Shown: piece after piece, positions 865-33,479 of the stretch
Layout of the letters: each line of letters begins with the position of its first letter
How positions within the stretch are numbered: the first letter of the stretch is position 1
Source of the DNA: a virus
Length of the DNA: 33,488 bases
Reading direction: 5' to 3' (one strand)
Virus record (IMG/VR): IMGVR_UViG_3300041409_001206
Location: 1 to 33,488 of that record
The notes under the pieces: model-generated
The model's database searches: none
What the model was told of the DNA's origin: nothing
Seen by the model: the letters and a program-made list of their open reading frames with translations, nothing else
Position numbers and translations under genes: made by a program

Positions 865-1152
865 TCAGCGGCTTTTGTGGAAAGCATCCTAGAAAGATGC
901 TTTCCCTGCAAGAGTTTCGGCGCGGGCGTTTATCATTCGATTGCCGATTTCTGCGTCTTTCGCCCAGGACGGAACGAGTTCCCATTTGAGAGTAGAAACG
1001 GCGCGGTCATCGCCTTCCACGCGAACGACGTTAATCATCTGCGATAGCGCAATATTATATCTGGGGCCGAAGACCGCCGGATTGAGTTTTCCTACCTTAA
1101 ATTCTCGTTTATACCATTCGGGCTTTGCCGTATTTGAAAATCTTCCGCACAT
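865..1152 (-). pseudogene. SRAP (SOS response-associated peptidase) remnant
   Basis: The first 87 residues match the N-terminal part of the SRAP family (YedK/HMCES), which crosslinks to abasic sites in single-stranded DNA. Visible hallmarks are MCGRFS with the catalytic Cys2, a PRYNIALSQ motif with the active-site Asn, WELVPSWAKD, and NARAET with the conserved Glu. Full-length members are about 200-230 residues. Here an in-frame TAG at 889-891 interrupts the conserved stretch after KASF. The same frame then continues with DAFHKSR, which fits the family, before a TGA at 865-867. No further homology is visible, so the gene lost its C-terminal half, including the later active-site His. A TATAAT-like -10 lies only 7 nt ahead of the ATG. 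I infer a non-functional relic. A truncated but expressed N-terminal protein cannot be excluded. Confidence 0.8.
879..905. repeat. Perfect 10-bp inverted repeat at the SRAP stop codon
   Basis: GGAAAGCATC (879-888) and GATGCTTTCC (896-905) are exact reverse complements separated by 7 nt. The premature TAG of the SRAP remnant (889-891) lies in the loop. There is no T-tract on either side that would make it a clear intrinsic terminator. It may be a local duplication/inversion scar or a weak bidirectional transcription end between convergent genes. Confidence 0.6.
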
Positions 1153-1165: not shown

Positions 1166-1388
1166 CATTCGGAATAAAGCCTTAAAATATTTCTTTACAG
1201 TTTTATGCCCTTGTGCTAATTTTTATCCAATTCAAATATTGAGATGGAAAAGTGAATCTTCTGCCCTTTCTTATATCTTATTTCAAAAGTGAAAAGTTTT
1301 TGTTTTGCTAATCTATCTCTCTTCAAAAAGTTTAAATTCAGATGCAGTAATGAAGTTCAATTCAGATAGATTTTATTTCAAACAAAAT

Positions 1389-2753
1389 ATGAAAAAAATT
1401 TTCATCAGGACTAACTGTCATAATTCTGGTTCATTCGAGGAACGCCTTGCCAATGACCTCAAAGCAGCCCTTGAACACAAAGTTATCATAAACGATGATT
1501 ATTCCATTTTGCCTGGAACTGATTTGCATAGTGAAATAAAAAGACAAATCTTTGAGTCAAACGTTACGCTTTTTGTCGTCCGTAGATTTCAGACTGACCT
1601 CAATTCTCTTTTTCTAGATGAAGTGAAATTTGCCTTGCAAAGTTACAAACGGGTTATTTTGGTTCTGGTTGATGATGTTCAAATACAATACGAAGATTTT
1701 GATTTGTTAGCTAGTCCTTTAAGGACTTTAATCCTTTTTGGGGACTTTCGTTTTCGAACGTTATATTGGCACGACGACATTAAAAGTTTAGCCCAAAAAA
1801 TTGTGCTGGCGCTAGAACGAAGCTCCTCTGGAATTCACAGAGTTGCTTCCGCTAGGGGTGATCGACTTATGGAAGAACCCAAATTAGCGGCCGCTAGGAG
1901 GACCTTCAAACCTGAGGGTGATCCAGTTAAATGCACGGTTTTCGCATCTCCTGAGGTAAGACAAGGAGGCGAACTGCTGATACAATGCTTCGCGCATTTT
2001 TCTACAGACGACGCACGCGTGCGTCGTCTGGCTATCGAATACGATGAAAATGCCAAGGCCCGAGGATCCCGAACTTTTGAGGTAGAGACTGAACGCGGAT
2101 CCAGAATTACGTTTAACTTATTTATGCCGAAAGGCGTCGAAAATACTGAACCGGTTCAAAACTTAGTGTGGCAGGGCTATCCTGAAGCAGTTCAATTTGC
2201 CATAAAATTTCCAAAAAACTTCGAAACGGGCGATTACACCGGCACTGTATATGTCAGTCGGGAAGGCGTTCCATGCGGGCATATTAAATTTAAGATAACG
2301 GTTATCGCTAAATGCTTCACTCCGTCAACTAAAAAATCCAAACAGATTGAACAATGGACGCCTTATAAAAAAGCCTTTATTTCATATGCGTCGGCCGACC
2401 GCAATGAAGTACTTAAAAGAGTGCAGATGCTCGCCAGACTCGATATTGAATACTTCCAAGACGTACTCAACCTCGAACCGGGGGAATTATGGGAAAACGA
2501 ATTGTATAAAAACATCGATAAAAGCGACGTTTTCTTTCTCTTTTGGTCGAATGCCGCGAGAAACTCCAAGTGGGTTATGAAAGAAGTGCATTATGCATTA
2601 AAAAGAAAAGTTGGAGACGATTTAGCTTTGCCGGAAATTATTCCGATCATCATTGAGGGACCGCCCCCAGCCTACGTTCCGCGAGAGCTGAGTCATCTTC
2701 ATTTTAACGACAAGATTGTATATTTTGTTGAGGATGAAAATCTCAAGACGTAA
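1389..2753 (+). CDS. Double-TIR domain protein with central beta-sandwich-like domain
   Basis: Predicted cytosolic protein of 454 residues with three parts. Residues about 1-145 form a divergent TIR-like domain (starts MKKIFIRTN; helix LFLDEVKFAL with Glu at about 78). Residues about 175-308 form a beta-rich domain (PVKCTVFASPEV ... GHIKFKITVIA) that I associate with bacterial TIR proteins. Residues about 325-454 form a canonical TIR domain (KKAFISYASADR, FFLFWSNAARNSKWVMKEV). In TIR NADases such as SARM1 the catalytic Glu sits in the helix matching SKWVMKEV (Glu at about 399). The reading frame is open back to a TTG at 1305, with another ATG at 1350. I chose the ATG at 1389 because the TIR fold begins there; none has a good ribosome binding site. 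TIR proteins commonly act in anti-phage defence by NAD depletion. That role is inferred here. No partner gene (STAND, SIR2, Thoeris ThsA) is adjacent. Confidence 0.75.
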   Translation: MKKIFIRTNCHNSGSFEERLANDLKAALEHKVIINDDYSILPGTDLHSEIKRQIFESNVTLFVVRRFQTDLNSLFLDEVKFALQSYKRVILVLVDDVQIQYEDFDLLASPLRTLILFGDFRFRTLYWHDDIKSLAQKIVLALERSSSGIHRVASARGDRLMEEPKLAAARRTFKPEGDPVKCTVFASPEVRQGGELLIQCFAHFSTDDARVRRLAIEYDENAKARGSRTFEVETERGSRITFNLFMPKGVENTEPVQNLVWQGYPEAVQFAIKFPKNFETGDYTGTVYVSREGVPCGHIKFKITVIAKCFTPSTKKSKQIEQWTPYKKAFISYASADRNEVLKRVQMLARLDIEYFQDVLNLEPGELWENELYKNIDKSDVFFLFWSNAARNSKWVMKEVHYALKRKVGDDLALPEIIPIIIEGPPPAYVPRELSHLHFNDKIVYFVEDENLKT

Positions 2754-5976: not shown

Positions 5977-7757
5977 CAAGCTATTCCCTCCGAAACGAGA
6001 CTGACGCGCTCGAAAATTTCGGGCAAAGTAAGCCACTCCTGAAGCCGAAATATGCGCGTGTCGGCCGTATCTTCCGGGCTGTTGTCGGTCGCTTCCAGAA
6101 CCGCGAAAGCCTTCGCGTCGAAATCGCCGAGCGCGTGCGAAACTTCGATTATGTCCTGCGCGATGACCTGGTAAGTGCGCGCCGTGCAGCTCGTATCGAT
6201 AAAGACGTCGGCGAGAATCGTGCGGCTGATGATATAGGCGAGAACCTTGCGCGCCTGCCATCTCGTCATATTGCCTAAATCGACCGGCTCGCCGTAAATT
6301 TTCCGGTTTCCGGCCGCTCGAATCAGTTCGGGAATTTCGAGCATCACCGGCGAAATCGGCTCTTCGAGAAAGCGCGAATCTAGGTCGTTGAATTTCGCTT
6401 CCCAGACGTTTCGCAGCTCCTGCACGCGGCGGTCTGCGCGGGAAAATGAAAATATGTCGCGGCCGCTGTCATCCTGCAGAATTTGTCGCTCGTTTTCCGG
6501 CAAATCGTCCTGAAGATGAAACGAGGCCGCGAGCTGCTCGATGCAGTAAAATTCCATCTTTCCGTCAACGTCCTGGCGAATCGAGTTTGAAACGAGCAGA
6601 ACGCGGTCAATCATCTGGTCCGTGGTCGTCGGAACGGAAAACTCGACGTTTGCTTCGTAAAGCGCCTGCTCGACCGGCAGCGGATATAAAGCTTCGGGCG
6701 GAATGATTTCTTCCGTCTGCGATTCAGACGACCATTTCAAATGAAACTCGCCCGTTACGGTGCTGTCGTTCCATTCCACCTTTATGTCGTAAAACTGACC
6801 GGCAACGAGGTCAATCGTCCCGGAATGCGTGCCGGGCGTCGTGCCGTCGTCCGTCCACTCATTGATAATTTCGTGGCCGTCGACCCAAAGCCGAGCGCCG
6901 TTGTCGTGAACGATTTTGAAAGTGTATGTTTCCGAAAAAAGCGCCAGAATCCTGCCTTCCCATCTGACGCTGAAATTATCCGCGTCCTGGCCTACCGCCG
7001 GAGCGTTCGCACTGGACGTGAAATCTATTACCGGGTCAATGCGCGACGAAAGAAACGTCTCGAAATTCGTGCCGTTGTAAAATGACCCGGTCAGGCCGAA
7101 GCCGTTAAAGCCCGCAATCGATGTGTAATCGACCATCTCGGTCTGAGCGTGAAAATCCCGGAACGCCGTCCAGACCGGCCAGTTAATGTCGTCGATTGAA
7201 GCGGCGGCGCTATAAATCAAATACCAGTCCGCGATGACGCGCGCCGGGTTGACCGAATATGTAAAATACGTTTCGTCCAAACTTACGCCGGCGCGCAGAG
7301 TTGCAACCGTGACGACGATTTCGCCATCTTCGTCGATTTGATTGCCTTCGTCGTCGAAATCGGGAAATTTGTCGCCTTTGAAAATGCCGCGAAAATCCGT
7401 CGGCGGCGTTGCTTCAGTATCGGCCGCGCCGATTCCGGTCGGGCATTTCACGTCGCAGATGACAGTCCGGTAGTGCGGAACGTCGGTGTCGAACCAGTCG
7501 GTCGTTTCGGTTTGATTGCCGTCGAGAAAATGATAATCGGCAGCCGGAACATTCAGACCTTTGAAAAATATTGCTTCGGCTTCGGTCCACCCGCCGCGCG
7601 TGTCGGCGAGCGCCTGCCGCAAATAAATATTGTGCGTCGGCGAAACACCGACCGAATACGACCAGAGCAAATGCCCTTCGACCGAATGACGCCCGGCAGC
7701 CGCCGCCAGCACTTTGCGCTGCGCGTCCGCGTTTTTCAGATGATTGACTAAGCCCAT
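5976..7757 (-). CDS. Tail-tip/baseplate protein with inserted PA14 domain
   Basis: The frame runs open to 7928, but the ATG at 7757 (MGLVNHLKNADAQRK) lies 2 nt after the upstream stop and gives a sensible N-terminus; the upstream extension is out-of-frame noise. Of 593 residues, the N-terminal third resembles tail-tip J/hub proteins (THNIYLRQALADTRGGWTEAE, later WYLIYSAAASIDDINW). A PA14 domain occupies about residues 290-420: FSVRWEGRILALFSETYTF, DNGARLWVDGHEIINEW, GQFYDIKVEWNDS, FHLKWSS. PA14 domains bind sugars in adhesins and glycosidases. The rest (about 425-593) is a further tail-tip region. It is translationally coupled to the LamG-like gene (TGATG). I infer a hub or central tip protein carrying an extra glycan-binding module. 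Confidence 0.8.
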   Translation of the reverse strand: MGLVNHLKNADAQRKVLAAAAGRHSVEGHLLWSYSVGVSPTHNIYLRQALADTRGGWTEAEAIFFKGLNVPAADYHFLDGNQTETTDWFDTDVPHYRTVICDVKCPTGIGAADTEATPPTDFRGIFKGDKFPDFDDEGNQIDEDGEIVVTVATLRAGVSLDETYFTYSVNPARVIADWYLIYSAAASIDDINWPVWTAFRDFHAQTEMVDYTSIAGFNGFGLTGSFYNGTNFETFLSSRIDPVIDFTSSANAPAVGQDADNFSVRWEGRILALFSETYTFKIVHDNGARLWVDGHEIINEWTDDGTTPGTHSGTIDLVAGQFYDIKVEWNDSTVTGEFHLKWSSESQTEEIIPPEALYPLPVEQALYEANVEFSVPTTTDQMIDRVLLVSNSIRQDVDGKMEFYCIEQLAASFHLQDDLPENERQILQDDSGRDIFSFSRADRRVQELRNVWEAKFNDLDSRFLEEPISPVMLEIPELIRAAGNRKIYGEPVDLGNMTRWQARKVLAYIISRTILADVFIDTSCTARTYQVIAQDIIEVSHALGDFDAKAFAVLEATDNSPEDTADTRIFRLQEWLTLPEIFERVSLVSEGIA

Positions 7758-19741: not shown

Positions 19742-20791
19742 TTAGCTCATGATACCCGTATCGGTCGTGTAGATTTTCTCGTCGGTCGGAATCGGCAGAG
19801 CGTCGAGCTGCGCTTGCAGCTTCAAAGCTTTGTCGTCGTTTTCGGCGAAGTGAAAAACGGATACGCCGCGGACGTCGATTTTCGCGTCGGGAACTAGCGT
19901 GGAAAGGTCCTGCGCGCGCGAGACCGGAGCGAACGGTGTTTTGCCGACCATGCCGCCGACCGGAACAACCGCGATATAGCTTTCGTCGAAATATCGTTTT
20001 TTCTCCGTGCGTGTACCGCCGTCAACGAAAAAGTCGCCCGTTTCGTTGTTTTCGATAAAAACGATATTCAAACCGGTTCGATTACGAATTTCCTTGTAAA
20101 ACTCTTCGTAACCCATACGCTGGCCGTTTGCCAGCGCCGGCGCGTCGTCGAAAATCGCCTGGATGACGGTTGCCGAGCTCATTACGCCGAGAATTCCGCC
20201 TTTGACATATGTTTTCGCGACTTTGAGCCACGCGATGAATTTGCCGAACGCGCCGGAAGTCCAGGGCGAAACGGCGACGGTCTGGCGCGCAACATCGATG
20301 CCGAAAGAAGTCCGGTAAAACTTTTTCGACTGCGCGTCATACTGGTCGATGTAGCCTTTAAGCCACGCGTCCATCGCGTCTTTTTCGAGCGTTCTCCAAG
20401 CCGCCATCGCGAGCGTGTCGCCGCGTTCCGGGATTGTTACCTTGAGCTGCTCGACCATCAACTGCTGGTTGTTCAGAAATCTCTCTCTGAGCGCCACCAG
20501 CTCCTGTTCGTGAATCAGGTCTTCGGTTTCAATCGGGATGATGTTAATTTTCCGCGTGTCCGGCGTGATAATCGGAATGCGCCGGCCGTGAGCGTCCCAT
20601 TCGCGGCGCGCGCCGACCGGGCGGAAATCCTTCGTAATCAAATCGGTCACGTCGTGCGTTTGAACGTCGACGCGCGGGAAAAGCGTCGACCATTTGAGCG
20701 TGCCGTTGTCCGTCGGGTCGAGCATTTGCACTCTGACCGTGAGAGCAGCAGCAGTTAATTTTTTGACTTTTTCAATCCAAGATAACTTCAT
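19742..20791 (-). CDS. Major capsid protein (lambda gpE-like, HK97 fold)
   Basis: The 349-residue product matches the size and layout of the phage capsid E family: an N-terminal arm with PRVDVQTHDVTDLITKDFRPVGARREW, a basic P-loop-like region RRIPIITPDTRKINIIPIET, a long spine helix (LVALRERFLNNQQLMVEQLKV), DTLAMAAWRTLEKDAMDAWLKGYID, a central domain with AYVKGG-type strands and ATVIQAIFDD, then YEEFYKEIRNRTGLNIVFIE, and a C-terminal strand DIRGVSV-like segment (residues about 310-320). It follows the decoration-like gene by 14 nt with TAAGGAGAAC ahead of the ATG. The function is well supported by family features and by the portal-scaffold-decoration-capsid order. Confidence 0.85.
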   Translation of the reverse strand: MKLSWIEKVKKLTAAALTVRVQMLDPTDNGTLKWSTLFPRVDVQTHDVTDLITKDFRPVGARREWDAHGRRIPIITPDTRKINIIPIETEDLIHEQELVALRERFLNNQQLMVEQLKVTIPERGDTLAMAAWRTLEKDAMDAWLKGYIDQYDAQSKKFYRTSFGIDVARQTVAVSPWTSGAFGKFIAWLKVAKTYVKGGILGVMSSATVIQAIFDDAPALANGQRMGYEEFYKEIRNRTGLNIVFIENNETGDFFVDGGTRTEKKRYFDESYIAVVPVGGMVGKTPFAPVSRAQDLSTLVPDAKIDVRGVSVFHFAENDDKALKLQAQLDALPIPTDEKIYTTDTGIMS

Positions 20792-21562: not shown

Positions 21563-22381
21563 CTATTTCGCTGTTGCCGGCGGCGGCGCGACGGGCTGGC
21601 CGCTCAGGGCGGCGAGTACCGACGCGTTGTCCGTTGGCTTCGCGGTATTCTGGTTTTTCATTTCCTCGCGAATTTCGTCGAATTCGTTTGTGCCTTTCGC
21701 CTTTTTGCCCGATTCCTGTTTGACCCACTTCTTACCGCTGCCCTGGCTTTCGCCCGGATCGCCATCGCCATCGCCTGCGTCTTCGGCGGCGAACATATCG
21801 GCGAATTTGCTGAAAAAGTTGTCTTTTTCGAGAAATTCACCCAGCTTTTGCCGTTCCGTTTTGCCGTCTTTTTCCTGAACGACGTACCAGACTTCCGTCT
21901 CGTTTTTGTCGTCGTCCTTTTCCTTTTTGCTTTCGAATTTCAGTTTTTTGTCCTTCGCCAGCTCGACAAATTTATCGTTTAATTTGTTGGCCGCTGCGAC
22001 GGTTTCAACCGTTTTTTCGTAATCGACAGCATCGAGTTTTCCTTGCAGTTCGTCGGCTTTGGTTTTCAAAGTCGGGATTTCACCGGCGGTCAATCCGGCC
22101 GTTTTCGCCGCATTGCCTAGCTCTTCCACGTCAGGGTCGACCGCGATTTTGCCGGTCGGAAGCGTTTTTGCTTCGGCGCGGGTCGCACGGTCCTCGGCTT
22201 TGCGCAAATCTTCTTTCAACGTGCGCTGCGTGTTTTCCAGGCTGACTTTGTTCTGGATAATCGGAACATCATCATCAAGTTCGATAAGCTCCCATCTGCC
22301 GTCTCTTTCCTCGTATGCGTCAACGAGGCCGGCGGGAACGTCTTCTTTTTTCGCGTAAAAATGTTTAAGTTTTTTTGGCAT
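21563..22381 (-). CDS. Capsid scaffolding protein
   Basis: A 272-residue, highly charged protein between portal and capsid genes. The N-terminus MPKKLKHFYAKKEDVPAGLVDAYEE and the following coiled coil (about 50-160: LENTQRTLKEDLRKAEDRATRAEAK ... LKTKADELQGKLDAVDYEKTVE) are typical of phage scaffolds. So are the acidic region at about 195-215 (GDGDGDPGE) and the basic stretch (SGKKWVKQESGKKAKG) near the C-terminus that would bind the capsid. No protease motif is present. Function: it guides capsid shell assembly and is then lost. It is the first gene after the structured terminator element at 22443-22560, so its expression probably needs readthrough or a promoter within that element. Confidence 0.75.
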   Translation of the reverse strand: MPKKLKHFYAKKEDVPAGLVDAYEERDGRWELIELDDDVPIIQNKVSLENTQRTLKEDLRKAEDRATRAEAKTLPTGKIAVDPDVEELGNAAKTAGLTAGEIPTLKTKADELQGKLDAVDYEKTVETVAAANKLNDKFVELAKDKKLKFESKKEKDDDKNETEVWYVVQEKDGKTERQKLGEFLEKDNFFSKFADMFAAEDAGDGDGDPGESQGSGKKWVKQESGKKAKGTNEFDEIREEMKNQNTAKPTDNASVLAALSGQPVAPPPATAK

Positions 22382-22442
22382 ATTCTTTTGAATTGTCCGG
22401 GATAAATTGGCTTTTGCCTGTGGATTTTGCGCTTTTGCGCGG

Positions 22443-22492
22443 AAAATAAAAACGCCGTGTAAGCTCTATTTTTCAAGAGCTTACACGGCGTT
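22443..22492 (-). terminator. Strong intrinsic terminator between portal and scaffold genes
   Basis: On the minus strand AACGCCGTGTAAGCTCT pairs perfectly with AGAGCTTACACGGCGTT (17 bp, 8-nt loop; arms 22476-22492 and 22451-22467), followed by TTTATTTT. It lies inside the late operon, after portal and before scaffold, and is part of an element repeated at 27.5 kb. Confidence 0.8.
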
Positions 22493-22560
22493 ACTCGCGT
22501 TTTCTGCCCGAAATTGTTAGCGGGCAAACCAAATTTTTCAGATTCCAAAGTAAACGATAA
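22443..22560 (-). repeat. Structured regulatory element, copy 1
   Basis: About 110 nt that align with 27486-27600. In minus-strand order: TTACTTTGGA, GAAAA(A)TTT.GGTTTGCCC, a small stem TGCCCG/CGGGCA, then the long terminator hairpin. The two copies share most positions, and both hairpins pair fully as minus-strand RNA. It fills most of the 224-nt space between portal and scaffold genes. I infer an attenuator or antitermination site for head gene transcription. No known riboswitch family was recognised. Confidence 0.65.
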
Positions 22561-22605
22561 ACGGAAAAAAAGCAAGATAAAACGAAATATTTCGTAAAAT
22601 TAGCA

Positions 22606-24369
22606 TCAAGCGCCCGCGCCAGCTCCTGCGCCCTGACCGCTATGACCGCCGCCCGAGTCGACGACGGTCATCTGGTCCAAAATCTGTTTTCGCTCGGCAT
22701 CGTCCCTGTAGCCTGCAATTTTGAGTATCTCGTCATTCGGCAAGCCGACATTTTTCGCGAGATTCGCGACTTCCAATCGTTTTTTCATCAGGCTCAGTTG
22801 ATAAAATTCACTTTCCTGAAGCCGCGCCACTTCCGCGTCAGGGTCTTCGATGCCGCGCCGGGCATGATAGGTTTCGACGGACATATAGCCGCTGTCGACG
22901 TCCTCGCGGTCGACTTTGACCTGTTCAGGGTCAACGGCGCCGGCGTCGACAATAGCATTGAAATCGACACGAAAATTTTCGAATTCTTTCTCGCGCGTCG
23001 CGCCACCGCCGCCGGTCGTGTGAGCCGCCGCAAAGAGCAGGCCGACTTCCAGAATCCATCTGCCGAGCGGGTCGGCCGCGGACTTTGAAGTTTTCAGCGA
23101 TTTTTCGAATTCGGCGCGTCCTTCCTGTTTCGAAATGCCGGAAGCGTCAGTCATATCGTTGAGCTGCACGTGACTCTGTTTGGCGCGGCCGAGCATCGCC
23201 ATTTTCAGCTTGTCGCGCCGCTTATCGAAAACATCCGACTGAACAGGGTCGACGATGACGACATTGGCGGTGGCGTAGCCTACGAGCTTTCTCTGTTCAC
23301 CTTCCGTGCCCTGATAAATCGGCGAGCCGCCCAGAAAAGTCGCCGACGAACCGCCGATTTGAAGCGGAGCGTCTTCGGTCGTTTCGACAGTAGAGCCGTC
23401 CGTTCCGCGTCTTTTAACCGTTTTTTTTGGCCTCTGTGAATTGATAAAATATCGCTCTCGGCTGCCGGCGATGACGATGTTTTTCCCGCCCATCGTCCAA
23501 GTCAAATTCACCTGCTTCTGCTGCGAGCGAACCTGCTCATCAATCAGCGTCGAGCGCGAAAGCTCAAACATTAAAAGATTTCCGTCGAGCTTGAGCGGCT
23601 GAATTTCGGGCGGTGCTTCCTCAGAGTCGGCGGGCGGAATATAAGCCGCAATCGTCGGCAGAGTTTCCTGAGCGAATTCCAGCAAAGTCTGTTCTTCAAA
23701 AACTCTAAGACGAGTGTTGCCCTCTTTATCGAGAAAGGTCAGCTCTACCTTTTTATCGTCGCCGCCAGTCGCGAAGATTCCGAAAGGCTCGTTGCGTTCC
23801 GAATCGTAAAAAATGCCGGCGACGTCTGCGGGCAAAACCTCGAACTGAAGCATTTTCAGCGCGTCCGACAGATTCTTATGCGTTTGAATATTTCCCGATT
23901 CGTCCACAAACCCGGGCGGAACATATGCGCGGACGACGCATTTATCCTGAATCAGCGCGGTGGACAGGGCCTCGCGCAGCGTTCCGAGCATCTTCCGGTC
24001 GTTCCACCATTCGACGAGCGCGGCGACGGTTTCCCGAATCATTCGTTCCTGCGGAGTTTCCCCGTCGCCGGCGTTTCCATCCGGCTCGGCCGCCGCCATA
24101 TCGACCAGATTCCAGTCCGGTTCGCGTGCGATGACGCCGTCCAGGTGTCGCTCCACGATTTCGGCGATTACGTTTTCCGAGGTAAAAGCTTTTTGAATCG
24201 TGTCGATTATCTGCTGGCGATTCTCGACGTATAGCGGAGGCAGCGCCGGAAAGCCTTCGCCTTCCTGCCAGTGGTCTCCGTCGAGAAAAAGTTTATTTGC
24301 CTTGTGTCCCGCTGTGATGCGGTCTTGCAGCAATCGCTGCGCTTCGCCTAAAGTAATGTTTTTATCCAT
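22606..24369 (-). CDS. Portal protein
   Basis: The 587-residue protein lies directly after the large terminase gene (12-nt gap), the standard order. It has an N-terminal clip/wing helix region (MDKNITLGEAQRLLQDRI, ENVIAEIVERHLDGVIARE), a long middle with ALIQDKCVVRAYVPPGF and LQFEVLPADVAGIFYDSERNEPFGIFAT, and a crown/stem signature LKMAMLGRAKQSHVQLNDMTDASGISKQEGRAEFEKSLK, which fits SPP1-type portals. The C-terminal helices (EVARLQESEFYQLSLMKKRLEV) resemble other portals, and a Gly/Ala-rich tail closes the chain. The dodecameric ring forms the DNA entry vertex and docks terminase. The ATG at 24369 is clear. Confidence 0.88.
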   Translation of the reverse strand: MDKNITLGEAQRLLQDRITAGHKANKLFLDGDHWQEGEGFPALPPLYVENRQQIIDTIQKAFTSENVIAEIVERHLDGVIAREPDWNLVDMAAAEPDGNAGDGETPQERMIRETVAALVEWWNDRKMLGTLREALSTALIQDKCVVRAYVPPGFVDESGNIQTHKNLSDALKMLQFEVLPADVAGIFYDSERNEPFGIFATGGDDKKVELTFLDKEGNTRLRVFEEQTLLEFAQETLPTIAAYIPPADSEEAPPEIQPLKLDGNLLMFELSRSTLIDEQVRSQQKQVNLTWTMGGKNIVIAGSRERYFINSQRPKKTVKRRGTDGSTVETTEDAPLQIGGSSATFLGGSPIYQGTEGEQRKLVGYATANVVIVDPVQSDVFDKRRDKLKMAMLGRAKQSHVQLNDMTDASGISKQEGRAEFEKSLKTSKSAADPLGRWILEVGLLFAAAHTTGGGGATREKEFENFRVDFNAIVDAGAVDPEQVKVDREDVDSGYMSVETYHARRGIEDPDAEVARLQESEFYQLSLMKKRLEVANLAKNVGLPNDEILKIAGYRDDAERKQILDQMTVVDSGGGHSGQGAGAGAGA

Positions 24370-24381
24370 AAGTTTTACACC

Positions 24382-25794
24382 TCAAAATTGGTAATAGCTT
24401 TCGGTCGATTCTTCCTCGTAGTCGTCGCCTCTCGGCTTCAAATCGATTTCGGCGACCATATAGCGCATGCAGTCGCATCCGTGGTCATTTTCCTTAACCG
24501 GAGCTTCTTTGTCTTCGTCCCAAACGTATTCTTCAATTTCGTCTTCGGTGCAAAGCGGTTTTTTCGCTTCGACTAGCTCGGGGTCGCGTTCGACCAAAGA
24601 ATCTCTCAGTAAATAAAGACCGGCTTTCCCGTTCGCTTTGACGCGCAGGCGAGACTCGACCTGCTGCAATCCGCTTGAAACGTCTTTGAACGCCGGAACA
24701 GTCGCCATTCCCAAATGTTTTTCCAGCGTTGCGCGGTCTTCGGCGTCGTGGTCGCAAATAATTTTTTGGGGCAAAGGCTCGGCGTCTTCACGGATTTTTG
24801 TTCTTTTCCGCGTTGTCGGGTCGTAGTGCCAGCCGCAAACTTTGAGAATTTCGCGGGCGTGGTCTTCGACCAATCGGTTCGTGAAATAAATCTCGCGAAT
24901 TCGATAAAGATTTCCGTCATTATCCATCGCCCATTCCTGCCAGACGAACGGATTACGATAACCGAAATCGACCACCCAAAACCTGCGCCAATCGCGCGGA
25001 ATGATAAATTCATCGTTCTCGTCATAACGATTTAACAGGTGAATTTTCGGGTCGTAGTTGTCCCAAATCATTCCCTCGGCCTGGACCCAGAGGCCTTTAC
25101 GCAGTCGCAGATATCGCACGCCGGTCAGGTTGTCGAGCTTCGCCAGATACGCAACGCCGCGCGGCGTCATCTCGCGCGTTTGCTGATTAAATAAAACCGG
25201 ATTGTCTTCGTGCCGTGACTGGAACATTTTCAGCACGCCGCGTTTCTGCCGCTGTTTGAGAAAATGTTTCGGGTTTTGCGGGTTGCAGTCGGCGAGCAGC
25301 TGCTGATATGGCATCACGCCGTTACGCAGGCGAGTAGTCAAAGCTTCCCAGTCGTCTTCGGTTGCCTCGGTAGCTTCCTGCATAAAAATCATATCGTATT
25401 CGGACGACATAATTTTCGACGATTTATCCAGACCGCCTACGACCAGAACAGAGCCGTTTTTGTATCGATATTCCTGGTCGGAAGTGAAGAAATGAACCAA
25501 ACGGCCTTTGCCGAGCGCGCCGACCGGCAGAACGTGATTTTCGTAAGTGACCAGCGCGGTTTGACTGATTGACGTACGGGTTTTACGGACGAGTAGGCCG
25601 CGCATACCGGAATATTTCATCGCGCACAGGTGCATCTTTTCGAGACAGCCGCGCGATTTTCCCGTTCCCGCCGGCCCGTCCGTGACCACTTCATCGTCCT
25701 GGCAGTAAAAGACGTCGAGCGCCGCGCCGATGGGTTGGTACGGCCGCTCTTCCGGTCGTGGCGTAATTGTTTTGGAAGACATTACTATCGCCAT
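24382..25794 (-). CDS. terL: Terminase large subunit
   Basis: ATPase/nuclease that packages phage DNA. With the start at ATG 25794 the protein has 470 residues. Visible motifs: Walker A GPAGTGKS (40-47), Walker B-like YDMIFMQE (133-140), coupling motif region LADCNPQNP, and the RNase H-like nuclease acids in WVVDFGYRNP, ICDHDAEDRATLEKHLG and ENDHGCDCMRYM. The frame is open to 25878, but the upstream part lies inside the small terminase gene and lacks a natural start. The ATG at 25782 (MSSKTITPRPEERP) is equally possible; neither has a strong ribosome binding site. It follows small terminase by 10 nt and is followed by portal, the canonical packaging module. Confidence 0.93.
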   Translation of the reverse strand: MAIVMSSKTITPRPEERPYQPIGAALDVFYCQDDEVVTDGPAGTGKSRGCLEKMHLCAMKYSGMRGLLVRKTRTSISQTALVTYENHVLPVGALGKGRLVHFFTSDQEYRYKNGSVLVVGGLDKSSKIMSSEYDMIFMQEATEATEDDWEALTTRLRNGVMPYQQLLADCNPQNPKHFLKQRQKRGVLKMFQSRHEDNPVLFNQQTREMTPRGVAYLAKLDNLTGVRYLRLRKGLWVQAEGMIWDNYDPKIHLLNRYDENDEFIIPRDWRRFWVVDFGYRNPFVWQEWAMDNDGNLYRIREIYFTNRLVEDHAREILKVCGWHYDPTTRKRTKIREDAEPLPQKIICDHDAEDRATLEKHLGMATVPAFKDVSSGLQQVESRLRVKANGKAGLYLLRDSLVERDPELVEAKKPLCTEDEIEEYVWDEDKEAPVKENDHGCDCMRYMVAEIDLKPRGDDYEEESTESYYQF

Positions 25795-25804
25795 AACCAG
25801 AAAA

Positions 25805-26416
25805 CTACACTTTAGAAGGGTCGAAACCTGCATAAACTTTCGGGAACAACGGCTCGCCGCCCGCGCCTGTGTGTTCATGTTTTTCGGTAAATAATTTGTG
25901 ATATTTCCCTAAATCTCTGCGCGCTTCGTGTGCCGAATACAATTCAAACTCGACCTCTTCGTGAAGGATTTCAACGTCTGACTGTAAATCTTCGATTTCA
26001 TCTTCGGCCAGAAAACCGCGCATATCTTCTCTGACTTCCGTTTTTCTCTGTTTGATGGAACGCTTCACTTTGAGTTTTTTTATCAAATGAGTTTTCCTGC
26101 GTTTTTTCGCCAACTCAAAGCTAAAATTTCCGTGCTCGTCGCAAACATCTTCGATATTTCCTTCGGCGTATTCGGTAAGCGTTGCGAGAACAACATTTGA
26201 GGGCATAGTCATTGCCGACAATCTTTCATCGATATAAGTCTTAATCTGAGGTTTTCTAAGGTTTTCGTAAGCCACCGCCGCAAGTGTCGCCCGATTGCCT
26301 TTATACTCTGCCAACTCAGCCGCCTTCGTGCCGTTAAAATGTGCTTCGTGCAAATAATAATCGGCAAACAATTTTTGCTTCGGCGTGAGTTTTATTTCTT
26401 CTCTTTCGTCGCTCAT
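25805..26416 (-). CDS. terS: Terminase small subunit
   Basis: A 203-residue protein of the Terminase_2 type that recognises the packaging site. The N-terminus carries the family hallmark LTPKQKLFADYYLHEAHFNGTKAA followed by helix-turn-helix-like residues (GNRATLAAVAYENLRKPQIKTYIDERL). A central coiled region with many Lys/Arg and Glu (about 105-165) probably drives oligomer formation, and the C-terminus (GGEPLFPKVYAGFDPSKV) would contact the large subunit. Its ATG overlaps the stop of the preceding PAS protein gene (ATGA), so the two are translationally coupled. It lies directly before the large terminase gene. Confidence 0.88.
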   Translation of the reverse strand: MSDEREEIKLTPKQKLFADYYLHEAHFNGTKAAELAEYKGNRATLAAVAYENLRKPQIKTYIDERLSAMTMPSNVVLATLTEYAEGNIEDVCDEHGNFSFELAKKRRKTHLIKKLKVKRSIKQRKTEVREDMRGFLAEDEIEDLQSDVEILHEEVEFELYSAHEARRDLGKYHKLFTEKHEHTGAGGEPLFPKVYAGFDPSKV

Positions 26417-27036
26417 ATCTTCTGCGTAGTTCCCTGCATCTCGACAAACTCGCCTTTGGCATTAAAATAAGGCTGCCACATCGAACGCGCGGGAAAAATG
26501 GTTTTGTCGGGAAGAACGGCGTCAAACTCGATATTGGATTTGGCTCTGCGCTCGCAGGCTCGAATCCAATAAGCGCTTACGCGTTCGAGGTCGTGCTTTG
26601 CTATTACCGAAAACCAGCCGTCGCCGAGCAGATCCTTTTCCTCTTTTTGAAATAATTTGCAGTAGGCTTCGTTCGCTTCGACGCATTCGCCTTTATCGTT
26701 CGCGCGCCAGAAGGGAACGGCCGAAACGTCCAATAAAAGCTCAATGCGTGCCGAGTTATAGCGGTGAAGCTCGGCGGACTCTTCCATTTTTTGATTTATT
26801 ACCGTTTCGATTCGATTCAATGCCGTTTCGACCTGCATCAGCTCTTTGAAAGCTGCGAGCACGCCGACGCCTTTTTTATAGTTGTTCCGGCTCTTGCGGA
26901 TTTTATTTACAATCCAGCCTAAAATAATGCCGCCGATGGTCAGCAATTCCCAGTAATCCTTAACCGTATCAATCCAAGTTTTGCCGTCGTCAATCATATA
27001 AATAGGAGAATGGAAATTTTCAACATCAAAAGCCAT
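26413..27036 (-). CDS. Membrane-anchored PAS domain protein in the packaging operon
   Basis: A 207-residue protein. Residues about 29-46 (WELLTIGGIILGWIVNKI) form one transmembrane helix, preceded by a short acidic segment. A basic stretch (RKSRNNYKKG) suggests the C-terminal part lies in the cytosol. Residues about 55-98 are a predicted coiled coil (FKELMQVETALNRIETVINQKMEE). Residues about 103-207 look like a PAS sensor fold: VPFWRANDKGECVEANEAYCKLF, LLGDGWFSVIAKHDLERV, NIEFDAVLPDKTIFPARSMWQPYFNAKGEFVEMQGT. No kinase or cyclase domain follows. It overlaps small terminase by 4 nt, so it is co-expressed with packaging genes. A sensor-like holin or lysis-timing protein is one idea; the function is unknown. 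Confidence 0.7.
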   Translation of the reverse strand: MAFDVENFHSPIYMIDDGKTWIDTVKDYWELLTIGGIILGWIVNKIRKSRNNYKKGVGVLAAFKELMQVETALNRIETVINQKMEESAELHRYNSARIELLLDVSAVPFWRANDKGECVEANEAYCKLFQKEEKDLLGDGWFSVIAKHDLERVSAYWIRACERRAKSNIEFDAVLPDKTIFPARSMWQPYFNAKGEFVEMQGTTQKI

Positions 27037-27075
27037 TTTGTCTCTCTCGTCCCCGTTTGCTCATCGTTGTTAATA

Positions 27076-27139
27076 TTTGCGGCTCGCCGCTAATGCGTCC
27101 GCGCGAAGCTTCAAAACACGCGAACCGGCGAGCCGCAAA
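27076..27139. repeat. 14-bp perfect inverted repeat
   Basis: TTTGCGGCTCGCCG (27076-27089) and CGGCGAGCCGCAAA (27126-27139) are exact reverse complements around 36 nt. Neither side has a T-tract. It occupies the 106-nt gap between the small gene at 27143 and the PAS protein gene, so it may be an mRNA processing or stability structure, or a protein binding site. Confidence 0.65.
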
Positions 27140-27142
27140 ACT

Positions 27143-27367
27143 TTATCTATAATCAACCCCTGCGTCTTTGAGCATTTCCTGCCCTTCTTCGTCGTCCTCG
27201 TCGCATCTGACTTCCGATGCCCGAAAAGCTGCGTCCTTGAATATCAAAACATTTCGCTCGTCGCCGCCCGTCAGTTCGTATGCCTCGACTTTGTTCCGCG
27301 ACAATATGTGCAGAAGCCGGGTAAACGCTTCTTCAGGAATGTCGTAAATTGGAACGTCGATATTCAT
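27143..27367 (-). CDS. Small hypothetical phage protein
   Basis: I do not recognise this 74-residue acidic protein (MNIDVPIYDIPEEAFTRLLHIL ... DDEEGQEMLKDAGVDYR). It has an alternating strand-helix-strand look (LLHILSRNKVEAYELTGGDERNVLIFKDAAF), which suggests a small alpha/beta fold. No cysteines pair, no membrane segment. It is the first sizeable gene of the packaging transcript, behind the structured element at 27.5 kb. There is no clear ribosome binding site before the ATG at 27367. A translation-coupled start from the short reading frame at 27411-27476 is possible but there is a 43-nt gap. Confidence 0.5.
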   Translation of the reverse strand: MNIDVPIYDIPEEAFTRLLHILSRNKVEAYELTGGDERNVLIFKDAAFRASEVRCDEDDEEGQEMLKDAGVDYR

Positions 27368-27410
27368 AAAATAGAATCGAGCCGAATCACCCTTTTCGTT
27401 CCGAGAAAGC

Positions 27411-27476
27411 CTATAGCTTCAGGAAGCCGCTACGCCCGCCGGTTTCGGATAGTTTTGGCTGTAATTCTTCGTTCAT
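27411..27476 (-). CDS. Possible 21-residue leader peptide
   Basis: A short open frame (MNEELQPKLSETGGRSGFLK, ending Leu-stop) starts at ATG 27476, 6 nt after GGAAG, a better ribosome binding site than that of the next gene. It begins just past the terminator hairpin of element copy 2. It has Lys and Glu at both ends and no hydrophobic segment. It may be a leader peptide or just a chance frame; length alone cannot decide. Confidence 0.3.
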   Translation of the reverse strand: MNEELQPKLSETGGRSGFLKL

Positions 27477-27485
27477 CGTTTACTT

Positions 27486-27609
27486 CCAAAACGAAAACAC
27501 CGCGTAAGCCCTCTTTTTGAAGACTTACACGGCGTTAGTGTGTTGACTGCCCGAGATTAGTGGTGGGCAAACCTAAATTTTCATAGTCCAAAGTAACGGA
27601 AAGTTTCAA
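27486..27609 (-). promoter_or_regulatory. Structured regulatory element, copy 2, with candidate promoter
   Basis: Homologous to 22443-22560. On the minus strand a promoter-like pair TTGAAA (27609-27604) and TATGAA (27585-27580) with 18-nt spacing would start transcription just before GGTTTGCCC, the small stem TGCCC/GGGCA and the terminator hairpin. The arrangement promoter, structured leader, terminator, small frame, late genes is that of an attenuator. What senses it is unknown. The rest of the 27368-27750 gap holds the short frame at 27411 and the divergent promoter of the plus-strand gene. Confidence 0.55.
27489..27536 (-). terminator. Intrinsic terminator ahead of the packaging genes
   Basis: As minus-strand RNA the arms 27519-27536 and 27496-27513 form an 18-bp stem with an AAAAA loop. 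Four of the pairs are G-U, which would be A-C mismatches on the plus strand, so the minus strand is the functional one. TTCGTTTTGG follows. It lies before the packaging genes rather than after a gene. Confidence 0.75.
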
Positions 27610-27667
27610 AAATTGCAATGAAAACTTTACTGAAGCAGTTTATTGATTAATATTGCTCTCTAAATAC

Positions 27668-27750: not shown

Positions 27751-28527
27751 ATGGAACAAACTACTCCTACTCCAGATTTGAATGCCTCGGGGAAATTAGA
27801 TGTGCAGGATATAGCTATTACTCTGGGAAAGAGTCCTACAGCTATCGTATACACAACAAAAGATAATCAACTCCGCTGGCGTTATTTCGGCAATAAGGGC
27901 AATCTCCCGAACAGGCTCATTAATGCTGTATCAGAGTTTGACACCATAATGACGAAAATAGGAGTTTCAGTTCCAAAATCTTATAAAAAAGAGGCATACT
28001 ATCAATTAGGCAAATCATTGTTTGCGGCTTTAAATTGTCCTGGAACTACAAAACATGTTAGCTATTTTCGCGATGTAAAATTATTTGTAGCAGCGAAATC
28101 TAAAGAGCGCGGCCGGTTTGTTTACGTTGCTGCAAGCATGGCCTCGATATTAATTTTGGCACTTCTTATAAGTTTTTCCTACTTTGAAACAAATAATATA
28201 CATGCTGATGCTGCACTAATTGAGCTCGGTGGATTGTTTGGCGCTATAGGCGCTTGTATTTCTGTCCTGCAGAGAAATAACTCGTTAAAGATTGATCCAT
28301 TCGTCGGTATTGGTTATATCTCTTTTCAAGGAATCGCTAGAATTTTTCTGGGATTCATTTTTGGATGTATTTTTGTAATCGCCAGTAAGGCTAATTTCAT
28401 TTTAGGAGTTGTTGGAAATACTGTTTATCCATTATTTATCTTATCTATTGTTGCAGGGTTTAGTGAAAGATTTATACCCGAGTTATTAAGCAGATTTGAG
28501 GCTCAAAATTTTAGGGATATTGAGTAG
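27751..28527 (+). CDS. Accessory (moron-like) membrane protein
   Basis: A 258-residue protein of no family I can name with confidence. Residues 1-125 are soluble and polar. Four hydrophobic segments follow at about 128-150, 160-178, 190-212 and 218-240. The closing part (ILSIVAGFSERFIPELLSRFE) contains a GFSER.IP.LL motif that I associate with uncharacterised bacterial membrane proteins. It lies on the plus strand between the packaging and replication blocks, is more AT-rich than both, and has its own promoter-like sequence, so I infer a moron expressed from the prophage, perhaps in superinfection exclusion or host defence. It converges with the Com-like gene, leaving a 22-nt gap. Confidence 0.6.
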   Translation: MEQTTPTPDLNASGKLDVQDIAITLGKSPTAIVYTTKDNQLRWRYFGNKGNLPNRLINAVSEFDTIMTKIGVSVPKSYKKEAYYQLGKSLFAALNCPGTTKHVSYFRDVKLFVAAKSKERGRFVYVAASMASILILALLISFSYFETNNIHADAALIELGGLFGAIGACISVLQRNNSLKIDPFVGIGYISFQGIARIFLGFIFGCIFVIASKANFILGVVGNTVYPLFILSIVAGFSERFIPELLSRFEAQNFRDIE

Positions 28528-32417: not shown

Positions 32418-32846
32418 TTAAGTTTCAGAACTTAGCCCCAATTCGAGAAGCTCGCGGAAATCTTCCGTCTCCACTCGTTCCAGACAATCGCCGCACGCGC
32501 AGATTCCTAAGAAACAGACCGAGCCTTCGGGAAACTCGTCGTAGGGCGCGCGAAAGCCGCAGAAGCTGCACGTCCGGAGCTTTTCTACGGGCAGGCGCCA
32601 GACGCCGCAGTGACTGGCAAAGCCTTCCATCCCGATATACTCGGACGTGCGGAGGGACTTTACGGGGCGTTCGACGCATTCGATGAGCTCCATTTTTTCG
32701 AGCTTTTCGAGATGGCGAATCGTTATCGTTCTATTCGAGCCGATAACTCCGACGGAGCTTATGCCGCCGCGCGAGCGCAGGAAATCGAGTATTTCTTTCC
32801 CGGTCGGGGAAATCCTTAATTTCGGTTTTTGCATAGGGTGATTCAT
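32418..32846 (-). CDS. Winged-helix plus zinc-ribbon protein
   Basis: The protein has 142 residues from ATG 32846 (the frame is open to a TTG at 32864; ATG 32834 is an alternative). The N-terminal half is a winged helix: ISPTGKEILDFLRSRGGISS, then TIRHLEKLEKMELIECVERP, then CGVWRLP. The C-terminal half is a cysteine-rich zinc-binding segment with CSFC and ICACGDC. The winged helix is clearly related to that of the protein at 32904-33479 (EILDYLKENGG, QLEELRLIENVQRP, CGIWKLK), which has its zinc ribbon at the N-terminus instead. The start lies inside the arm of a 24-bp hairpin. Probable DNA-binding regulators, function unknown. Confidence 0.6.
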   Translation of the reverse strand: MNHPMQKPKLRISPTGKEILDFLRSRGGISSVGVIGSNRTITIRHLEKLEKMELIECVERPVKSLRTSEYIGMEGFASHCGVWRLPVEKLRTCSFCGFRAPYDEFPEGSVCFLGICACGDCLERVETEDFRELLELGLSSET

Positions 32847-32900
32847 TGACTCAATCAAGGGCAAGACCGTGAAAGCCTTGCCCTTGATTGAGTCAATGAA
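32842..32900. repeat. 24-bp perfect inverted repeat with 11-nt loop
   Basis: Arms 32842-32865 and 32877-32900 are exact reverse complements; the loop is 32866-32876. It lies between two paralogous regulator genes. The ATG at 32846 of the downstream gene sits within one arm, so a folded transcript would bury it, and no T-tract follows, which argues against a simple terminator. The structure could be an RNase III site, an operator, a translational switch or a small palindromic insertion. Confidence 0.8.
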
Positions 32901-32903
32901 CGT

Positions 32904-33479
32904 TTATGCGGCCACTTTCCTTCCCGCTGCCTTCAACTTCCAAATACCACAATGCAGTTCTTCAGGCGTTAATTTCCCGCGACGTTCCAGCGGGAAATCG
33001 TTCTGGTAAACCGGACGTTGAACATTTTCGATTAAACGTAGCTCTTCAAGCTGTATTAATCTTTTAACGGTTCGCTGTTTGGTGTCGGCGAAGTTTGCGC
33101 CAATCGTAGCCTGACCGCCGTTTTCTTTAAGATAGTCGAGAATTTCCTGTTGGCTTTCGGTAATTTTGGAAGACTTCGCGGGAAGTTGTTTTGCGTTGCC
33201 TTGAACGGCAAGCTGGCGTCTGAAATGAACTGTGCTTTCTTGTTTTAGACAATAACCACACGCGACTAAATTATTGACCGAAGGTGCGTCCGGGCGAACG
33301 GCTGCCTCAACCAGACAAAAGGAACAATCTATCATTCCGTCAATTGCATATTGCGGAACTTCTTTTTCGAACGGATCTTTTTCTTCGGGAACAAATCCGG
33401 AACCGAGCCCACCGGTGGCTTTGATTAAATTGGTTTCGGAAGTAATAAGATTTGCAATAGCGTTTGCGCCTTTATACAT
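32904..33479 (-). CDS. Zinc-ribbon plus winged-helix protein
   Basis: A 191-residue protein. The zinc ribbon comes first (C52, C55, C74, C77: MIDCSFCLVE ... LVACGYCLKQ), reminiscent of the ClpX-type zinc-binding domain. Residues about 107-157 are a winged helix (SQQEILDYLKENGGQATIGA, TKQRTVKRLIQLEELRLIEN), and the chain ends ELHCGIWKLKAAGRKVAA. It is paralogous in its winged helix to the next gene, with the domains in reversed order. The ATG at 33479 is only 9 nt from the window end, so an upstream start is not excluded. Probable early regulator; DNA target unknown. Confidence 0.6.
   Translation of the reverse strand: MYKGANAIANLITSETNLIKATGGLGSGFVPEEKDPFEKEVPQYAIDGMIDCSFCLVEAAVRPDAPSVNNLVACGYCLKQESTVHFRRQLAVQGNAKQLPAKSSKITESQQEILDYLKENGGQATIGANFADTKQRTVKRLIQLEELRLIENVQRPVYQNDFPLERRGKLTPEELHCGIWKLKAAGRKVAA

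What the first reader, a model, noticed from the sequence alone, without database searches (positions are those of the whole stretch)
22443..27609. Two copies of a structured RNA element with a terminator flank the head gene block
Seen: about 110 nt at 22443-22560 and 27486-27600 align over most positions. Each contains GGTTTGCCC, a small stem TGCCC/GGGCA and a 17-18 bp hairpin followed by a T-rich tract, all on the minus strand. In copy 2 four pairs change to G-U on the minus strand (A-C on plus), which preserves the minus-strand helix and shows which strand is transcribed. One copy stands before the packaging genes and one between portal and scaffold, where a plain terminator would shut off capsid genes. 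Inferred: a duplicated attenuator, or a nascent-RNA antitermination site like put of HK022, controlling late operon segments. No known riboswitch was recognised.
Basis: partly seen in the sequence, partly recalled or inferred. Interest (0 to 1): 0.75.

Follow-up and report, generated by a model that had tools for sequence, protein, structure and literature searches.

The report
Paired late-gene promoter–terminator switches in phage
In an unstudied family of temperate phages, each of the two head-gene operons starts with the same short control stretch, a predicted promoter followed about 50 bases later by a predicted transcription stop signal, which probably keeps virion genes off until the phage lets RNA polymerase read through, as lambda does with a different sequence.

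Summary
Two homologous ~135-nt copies (80% identical, E 1e-22) lie on the minus strand, with a 5-bp stem and a 17-18-bp hairpin plus U-tract. The four G-U pairs are exactly as described. Both copies also occur at the same gene positions in a second phage (TerL 86% identical), where compensatory changes keep both helices. No other copy was found in IMG/VR, GTDB genomes, GenBank phages or Rfam.

Each copy is longer than reported. In all four, conservation starts abruptly at a predicted promoter (TTGC.., exactly 17 bp, TAC[T/C]TT), then 7 variable bases, then an invariant GAAAA (predicted +1). The transcript meets the hairpin ~45-50 nt later. Only ~27-73 nt separate hairpin and gene start in three of the four copies, with no promoter-like site, so late mRNA should have to read through.

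Best reading: a duplicated late promoter gated by an intrinsic terminator. It works like lambda pR'-tR' with Q, or AlpA, and probably needs an unidentified phage antiterminator. Nothing was tested for transcription. New variant of a known regulatory kind; moderate interest.

The parts
22547..22575 (-). Copy B promoter: -35 TTGCTT (22575-22570), 17-bp spacer, -10 TACTTT (22552-22547)
   Evidence: TTGN3-N17-TANNNT present in all four copies and nowhere else in the scanned 190-250 nt around each; conservation begins sharply at TTGC. Inference from pattern; not assayed.
22441..22539 (-). Copy B predicted transcript/leader from +1 (22539) to the U-tract
   Evidence: Invariant GAAAA exactly 7 nt after the -10 in all four copies; fold z -6.4.
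22505..22526 (-). Copy B small hairpin hp1 (TGCCC / 12-nt loop / GGGCA)
   Evidence: Present in all four copies; a C-G to U-A double change in relative copy rB.
22451..22492 (-). Copy B intrinsic terminator hairpin, 17 bp, tail TTTATTTT
   Evidence: -30.3 kcal/mol, d-score 39.7; covariation.
27590..27618 (-). Copy A promoter: -35 TTGCAA (27618-27613), 17-bp spacer, -10 TACTTT (27595-27590)
27488..27582 (-). Copy A predicted transcript/leader from +1 (27582) to the U-tract
27548..27569 (-). Copy A small hairpin hp1
27496..27536 (-). Copy A intrinsic terminator hairpin, 18 bp with four G-U pairs, tail TTCGTTTT
   Evidence: -27.5 kcal/mol, d-score 17.4.
21563..22381 (-). Gene directly downstream of copy B (scaffold-like by position, before major capsid)
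   Evidence: 58% identical homologue directly downstream of rB in the relative; no family hit.
19742..20791 (-). Major capsid protein
   Evidence: PHROG phrog_29 E 1.5e-10.
25805..27036 (-). PAS-domain protein (26413-27036) and small terminase (25805-26416) downstream of copy A
   Evidence: Pfam PAS E 2.8e-10; phrog_51 small terminase E 2e-24; homologues follow rA directly in the relative.
24382..25785 (-). Large terminase
   Evidence: phrog_2 E 6e-29.
32421..32846 (-). Candidate trans-acting regulator (winged helix plus Cys-rich C-terminus); role in switching the element is a guess
   Evidence: 72% identical in the relative; weak MarR/Fur-like winged-helix matches of a low-confidence model; no Q-family Pfam hit.

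Best explanation
Each copy is a complete late-operon control unit: a host-type (sigma-70-like) promoter, a ~95-nt leader with one small hairpin, and an intrinsic terminator just before the first late gene. Shown: homology of the copies, conserved position in two phages, conserved promoter geometry, compensatory changes in both helices, and little or no room for another promoter between terminator and gene in three of four copies. Inferred: the promoter fires, most transcripts stop at the hairpin in the lysogen, and late in induction a phage factor loaded at the promoter or leader lets RNA polymerase read through, switching on packaging and capsid operons together. This is the logic of lambda pR'/tR' with Q, or AlpA with its two targets. 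My estimates: regulated readthrough of some kind ~0.65; protein-loaded (Q/AlpA-like) ~0.45.
For: Two copies in the window and two at the same gene positions in IMGVR_UViG_3300000549_000017. All four carry TTGnnn-17 bp-TACnTT, 7 nt, then G(+1)AAAA; this is the only such promoter-like match around each copy, against a background of 0.16 per kb of strand, and conservation starts abruptly at the -35. Terminator: 16-18-bp stems, -26 to -30 kcal/mol, by far the longest in the window. Four pairs show changes on both sides, with 97.8% of cells paired against 33-53% when slid. Terminator-to-start distance is ~27 nt in rA and ~69-73 nt in wB and rB, with no promoter-like site. The gene upstream of copy A is divergent in both phages, so a promoter for the terminase operon must lie in or near copy A. 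The phages encode an XRE repressor, and G001 an ImmA-like peptidase, so are probably temperate, which gives a reason to gate a constitutive promoter. Precedents: PMC7171158, PMC6606751, PMC7969949, PMC11150451.
Against: Only four sequences from two phage types, so conservation and covariation statistics are thin. The -10 is poor (TACTTT/TACCTT), and the generic promoter scan did not flag it. Terminator strength is uneven: d-scores 39.7, 17.4, 9.5 and -10.1. No Q-family protein (PF03589, PF06530, PF06323) was found among the early proteins scanned. No RNA data and no host are known.
Confidence: 0.5

Rival explanations
1. RNA-only switch (attenuator): an alternative hairpin hp2 pairs the linker ACACG with CGUGU in the 5' arm of the terminator. 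If hp1+hp2 are held (by a ligand, a protein, or pausing) the terminator cannot close and transcription continues.
For: Truncated transcripts of all four copies fold as hp1 + hp2. The lower half of the terminator 5' arm is nearly invariant in sequence while the upper half covaries, as expected if it serves two pairings. Combined shuffled-linker p 0.015.
Against: hp2 is only 4-6 bp (-2 to -5 kcal/mol). Single-copy p is 0.03-0.19 and the copies are not independent. There is no compensatory change in hp2, and copy wA loses one pair. The full terminator is far more stable.
Confidence: 0.17
2. put-like antitermination RNA: the nascent leader itself binds RNA polymerase and makes it ignore terminators, as in HK022.
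For: Two copies per phage just downstream of two promoters, with a small structured leader; putL and putR are also a pair (PMC9378689).
Against: put sits at early promoters and is a ~70-nt two-stem-loop RNA (PMC9378689). Here only one small hairpin (5-7 bp) is well supported, and a conserved terminator follows within ~11 nt, which a constitutive antiterminator would simply defeat. No Rfam match.
Confidence: 0.08
3. Stand-alone small RNA or plain insulator: promoter plus terminator makes a ~95-nt sRNA or simply ends the upstream operon, and late genes are expressed by leaky readthrough with no regulation.
For: The promoter-to-terminator unit is self-contained. Weaker U-tracts in rA and rB would leak.
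Against: Nothing needs insulating at copy A, where the upstream neighbour is divergent in both phages. Both copies keep the same place directly before late genes. An sRNA would not need that place.
Confidence: 0.22
4. Scattered mobile or intergenic repeat (MITE/REP-like) with no phage function.
For: Two similar copies in one genome.
Against: Exactly two copies per genome at orthologous places in two phages. None in 257 Gb of bacterial genomes by pattern. Promoter geometry and helices are preserved.
Confidence: 0.03

Closest known systems
Phage lambda/21 late promoter pR' with terminator tR' and antiterminator Q
   Same: Host-type late promoter, short leader, intrinsic terminator before the late genes; the promoter can be constitutive and control is by readthrough (PMC7171158, PMC6606751).
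   Different: Two copies per genome, with a small conserved hairpin in the leader; the predicted transcript is ~95 nt (lambda's is ~194 nt, own knowledge). No Q-family protein found; no sequence similarity found.
AlpA antiterminator of Pseudomonas aeruginosa with its two target promoters
   Same: Two promoters in one genome, each with an intrinsic terminator right before the first gene. The factor is a predicted winged-helix protein acting at a DNA site between -35 and -10 (PMC7969949). Here the spacers share a T-tract and CTTTCGTT-like bases, and a conserved winged-helix protein exists.
   Different: No AlpA homology was shown; no binding or readthrough data; different organism group.
GafYZ control of the Caulobacter gene transfer agent
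   Same: Virion gene cluster gated by a terminator that a dedicated antiterminator bypasses; binding element between -35 and -10 (PMC11150451).
   Different: There the terminator is three 150-bp repeats after the first gene; here it is a single hairpin in the leader.
HK022 put RNA
   Same: Two related structured leaders per phage near promoters (PMC9378689).
   Different: Early operons, larger two-stem structure, and no built-in terminator as part of the conserved unit.

Membership tests
lambda-type pR'/tR'-Q late control | Intrinsic terminator between late promoter and first late gene | tested here: met
   All four copies, by sequence prediction.
lambda-type pR'/tR'-Q late control | Q binding element between -35 and -10 | tested here: inconclusive
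   The spacer is partly conserved (T-tract; CTTTCGTT) in four copies; binding not testable.
lambda-type pR'/tR'-Q late control | -10-like sequence in the initially transcribed region (sigma-dependent pause) | tested here: inconclusive
   TANNTT at about +8 to +14 in wA, rA and rB, not in wB (sequences).
lambda-type pR'/tR'-Q late control | A Q-family protein (PF03589, PF06530 or PF06323) encoded by the phage | tested here: not met
   No such hit among the early-region proteins scanned with Pfam; not every small ORF was scanned.
HK022 put antitermination RNA | ~70-nt RNA with two stem-loops | tested here: inconclusive
   hp1 is well supported; a second hairpin only weakly.
HK022 put antitermination RNA | Located at early promoters | tested here: not met
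   Both copies precede late genes (terminase, capsid).
HK022 put antitermination RNA | Works without a dedicated protein, through the RNA polymerase beta' zinc-binding domain | not testable with these tools
   Needs in vitro transcription.
Known riboswitch or other Rfam family | Match at the gathering score | tested here: not met
   0 matches in the window; only sub-threshold hits, mostly to eukaryotic miRNA families, with permissive search.

The most novel reading that the evidence does not exclude
The leader is itself a co-transcriptional RNA switch: hp1 and the hp2 antiterminator form first and, when stabilised by a phage product or RNA polymerase, keep the terminator open. This would be an RNA-encoded late-gene timer used twice in one phage, unlike Q (DNA-loaded) and unlike put (early, protein-free).
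Probability: 0.15. Interest if true: 0.7.

Novelty: new variant of a known kind. Interest (0 to 1): 0.42.

Why it matters
Late-gene control outside well-studied phages is mostly unknown. A compact unit with predicted start site, leader and terminator, present twice and conserved between two phages, gives a directly testable readthrough switch. It also gives a handle for finding a new antiterminator, because any early gene that raises readthrough of both copies would be the factor.

Tried and rejected
Rfam at gathering and at permissive thresholds: nothing credible. GenBank phages by blastn: none. IMG/VR by three DNA patterns: only the near-identical contig and the one relative, plus chance coding hits. 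GTDB genomes by pattern: 0. GTDB by portal protein: 0. Covariance model over 78 further TerL relatives: none. A fourth pattern used a wrong gap length (20-21 instead of 18) and missed the known copies; its 67 hits served only as a negative control and gave nothing with the model. Comparable promoter-terminator-gene layout in TerL relatives: no convincing case in those looked at. Portal structure model unusable, mean pLDDT 34. Mobile-repeat reading rejected because there are exactly two copies per genome at orthologous places. An inverted ATCGTTTACTT/AAGTAAACGAT pair between the copies was seen in the raw sequence; it is absent downstream of the other copies and treated as chance.

Full report
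WHAT IS THERE. The two copies are real and homologous: 80% identity over 111 nt, E 1.3e-22, and the top direct repeat of the window. Both fold strongly on the minus strand (z -6.4 and -5.0); copy 2 on the plus strand does not (z -0.5), which confirms the strand argument. The hairpins of 17 and 18 bp with T-rich tails are by far the longest terminator-like stems of the window: the next has 10 bp. A simple count of terminator-like sites in the region is, however, not above shuffles, so it is the stem length, not the count, that matters.

RELATIVES. The window is an IMG/VR virus record of 33,488 bases. IMGVR_UViG_3300035097_000032 is a near-identical phage (100% over 13.4 kb). IMGVR_UViG_3300000549_000017 is a true relative (TerL 86%; portal-position protein 61%). 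It carries two copies, at L018:4771-4898 (rA) and L018:10796-10926 (rB), at the same gene positions: before the PAS/TerS/TerL operon, and before the homologue of 21563-22381. rB is followed by the same conserved leader as window copy B (...GCGCAAAAGCGC...GGCAAAAGCC...), which supports orthology. Yet copy B resembles wA and rA (84/110 and 87/110) more than its own orthologue rB (72/110). This may reflect exchange between copies or fast change in rB. A covariance model of the four copies finds exactly these and their reverse-strand shadows in the three records, and nothing in 78 further TerL relatives. Patterns tuned to match all four copies found nothing else in IMG/VR and nothing in 84,980 bacterial and archaeal genomes.

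STRUCTURE. With the four copies, 97.8% of the pair cells are standard pairs, against 33-53% when the partner is slid. Four pairs show changes on both sides: one in the small stem (UGCCC/GGGCA to UGUCC/GGACA) and three in the upper terminator stem. Both helices are therefore probably under selection, although four sequences are few. The lower half of the terminator stem (AACGCCGTGTAA) barely varies.

PROMOTER. In all four copies conservation begins abruptly at TTGC and reads TTGCNN, 17 bp, TAC[T/C]TT, seven variable bases, then invariant GAAAA. TTGnnn-17-TAnnnT keeps the most conserved sigma-70 positions and the preferred spacing (own knowledge). It is the only such match around each copy, while the window holds 11 in 67 kb of strand. 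The predicted +1 is 22539 (copy B) and 27582 (copy A). The generic scan did not report these because the hexamers are weak. This remains a prediction.

WHY READTHROUGH IS NEEDED. From the terminator to the start codon of the next gene there are about 27 nt in rA and 69-73 nt in wB and rB, with no promoter-like site. In wA a 21-codon open frame with a GGAAG ribosome-site-like sequence follows directly (sequence). The gene upstream of copy A is divergent in both phages (window 27751-28527; L018 4066-4584), so the terminase operon cannot be fed from its immediate neighbour. Transcripts for packaging genes should therefore start at the element and pass its terminator. Transcripts from the terminase operon must also pass copy B to reach the capsid genes. 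Estimated terminator strengths are d = 39.7 (wB), 17.4 (wA), 9.5 (rB) and -10.1 (rA) (the scoring formula was applied from memory), so some leak is likely.

MECHANISM. Best reading: a host-type promoter kept silent by termination in the lysogen and opened by a phage antiterminator at induction. An XRE repressor lies in the extended contigs of both phages, and an ImmA-like peptidase in one, so the phages are probably temperate. Precedents are Q at pR' (PMC7171158, PMC6606751), AlpA with two promoters each followed by a terminator right before the first gene (PMC7969949), and GafYZ for a gene transfer agent (PMC11150451). Q, AlpA and GafZ use sites between or near -35 and -10; here the spacers share a T-tract and CTTTCGTT-like bases. 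Q also needs a -10-like element early in the transcript (PMC6606751); TANNTT occurs near +8 to +14 in three of four copies, too weak to count. No Q family member was found. The protein at 32421-32846, 72% identical in the relative, has a predicted winged helix and a Cys-rich end. It is a candidate by conservation only.

ALTERNATIVES. A linker-to-5'-arm hairpin (ACACG:CGUGU) would be an antiterminator. It forms in the truncated transcripts of all four copies, but the shuffled-linker p is 0.03-0.19 per copy and 0.015 combined, with non-independent copies and no compensatory change. put-like action is not excluded, but put sits at early promoters and has two large stems (PMC9378689). A stand-alone sRNA or unregulated leak cannot be excluded without RNA data.

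VERDICT. The interpretation as duplicated late-operon attenuator is supported in outline, and the put comparison is weak. It is a new, narrowly distributed regulatory element of a known logic.

Noticed in passing
window 32842-32900 (-); relative L121 ~7155-7212: A perfect 24-bp inverted repeat with an 11-nt loop overlaps the ATG (32846) of the winged-helix/Zn gene. The relative keeps the 3' arm and an altered but still largely pairing 5' arm. It could hide the start codon or be an operator.
   Followed up: partly
window 26413-27036 (-); L018:4912-5535: A PAS-domain protein with a hydrophobic N-terminal stretch sits directly upstream of the small terminase gene in both phages; an odd partner for packaging genes.
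   Followed up: no
window 27751-28527 (+); L018:3065-4584 (-): Different cargo genes, divergent from the late operon, occupy the same slot between the primase module and copy A: a membrane protein here; an epimerase-like protein plus a membrane protein in the relative.
   Followed up: no
window 1305-2753 (+): TIR-domain protein (Pfam TIR_2 E 4.7e-26, weak ThsB-like hit) near the left end, a possible defence gene or host DNA.
   Followed up: no
window 889-1152 (-): SRAP protein matched over only 90 of 214 profile positions, apparently truncated; may mark host DNA or a prophage edge.
   Followed up: no
window 32904-33479 (-) and 32421-32846 (-): Adjacent paralogous winged-helix-like proteins (27-28% identity) in the early region; only the second has the Cys-rich tail at its C-terminus.
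   Followed up: partly
downstream of copy B: window 22382-22440 (-); L018:10927-10986: Readthrough leader conserved between phages with two tiny hairpins, GCGCAAAAGCGC and GGCAAAAGCC, before the start codon.
   Followed up: no
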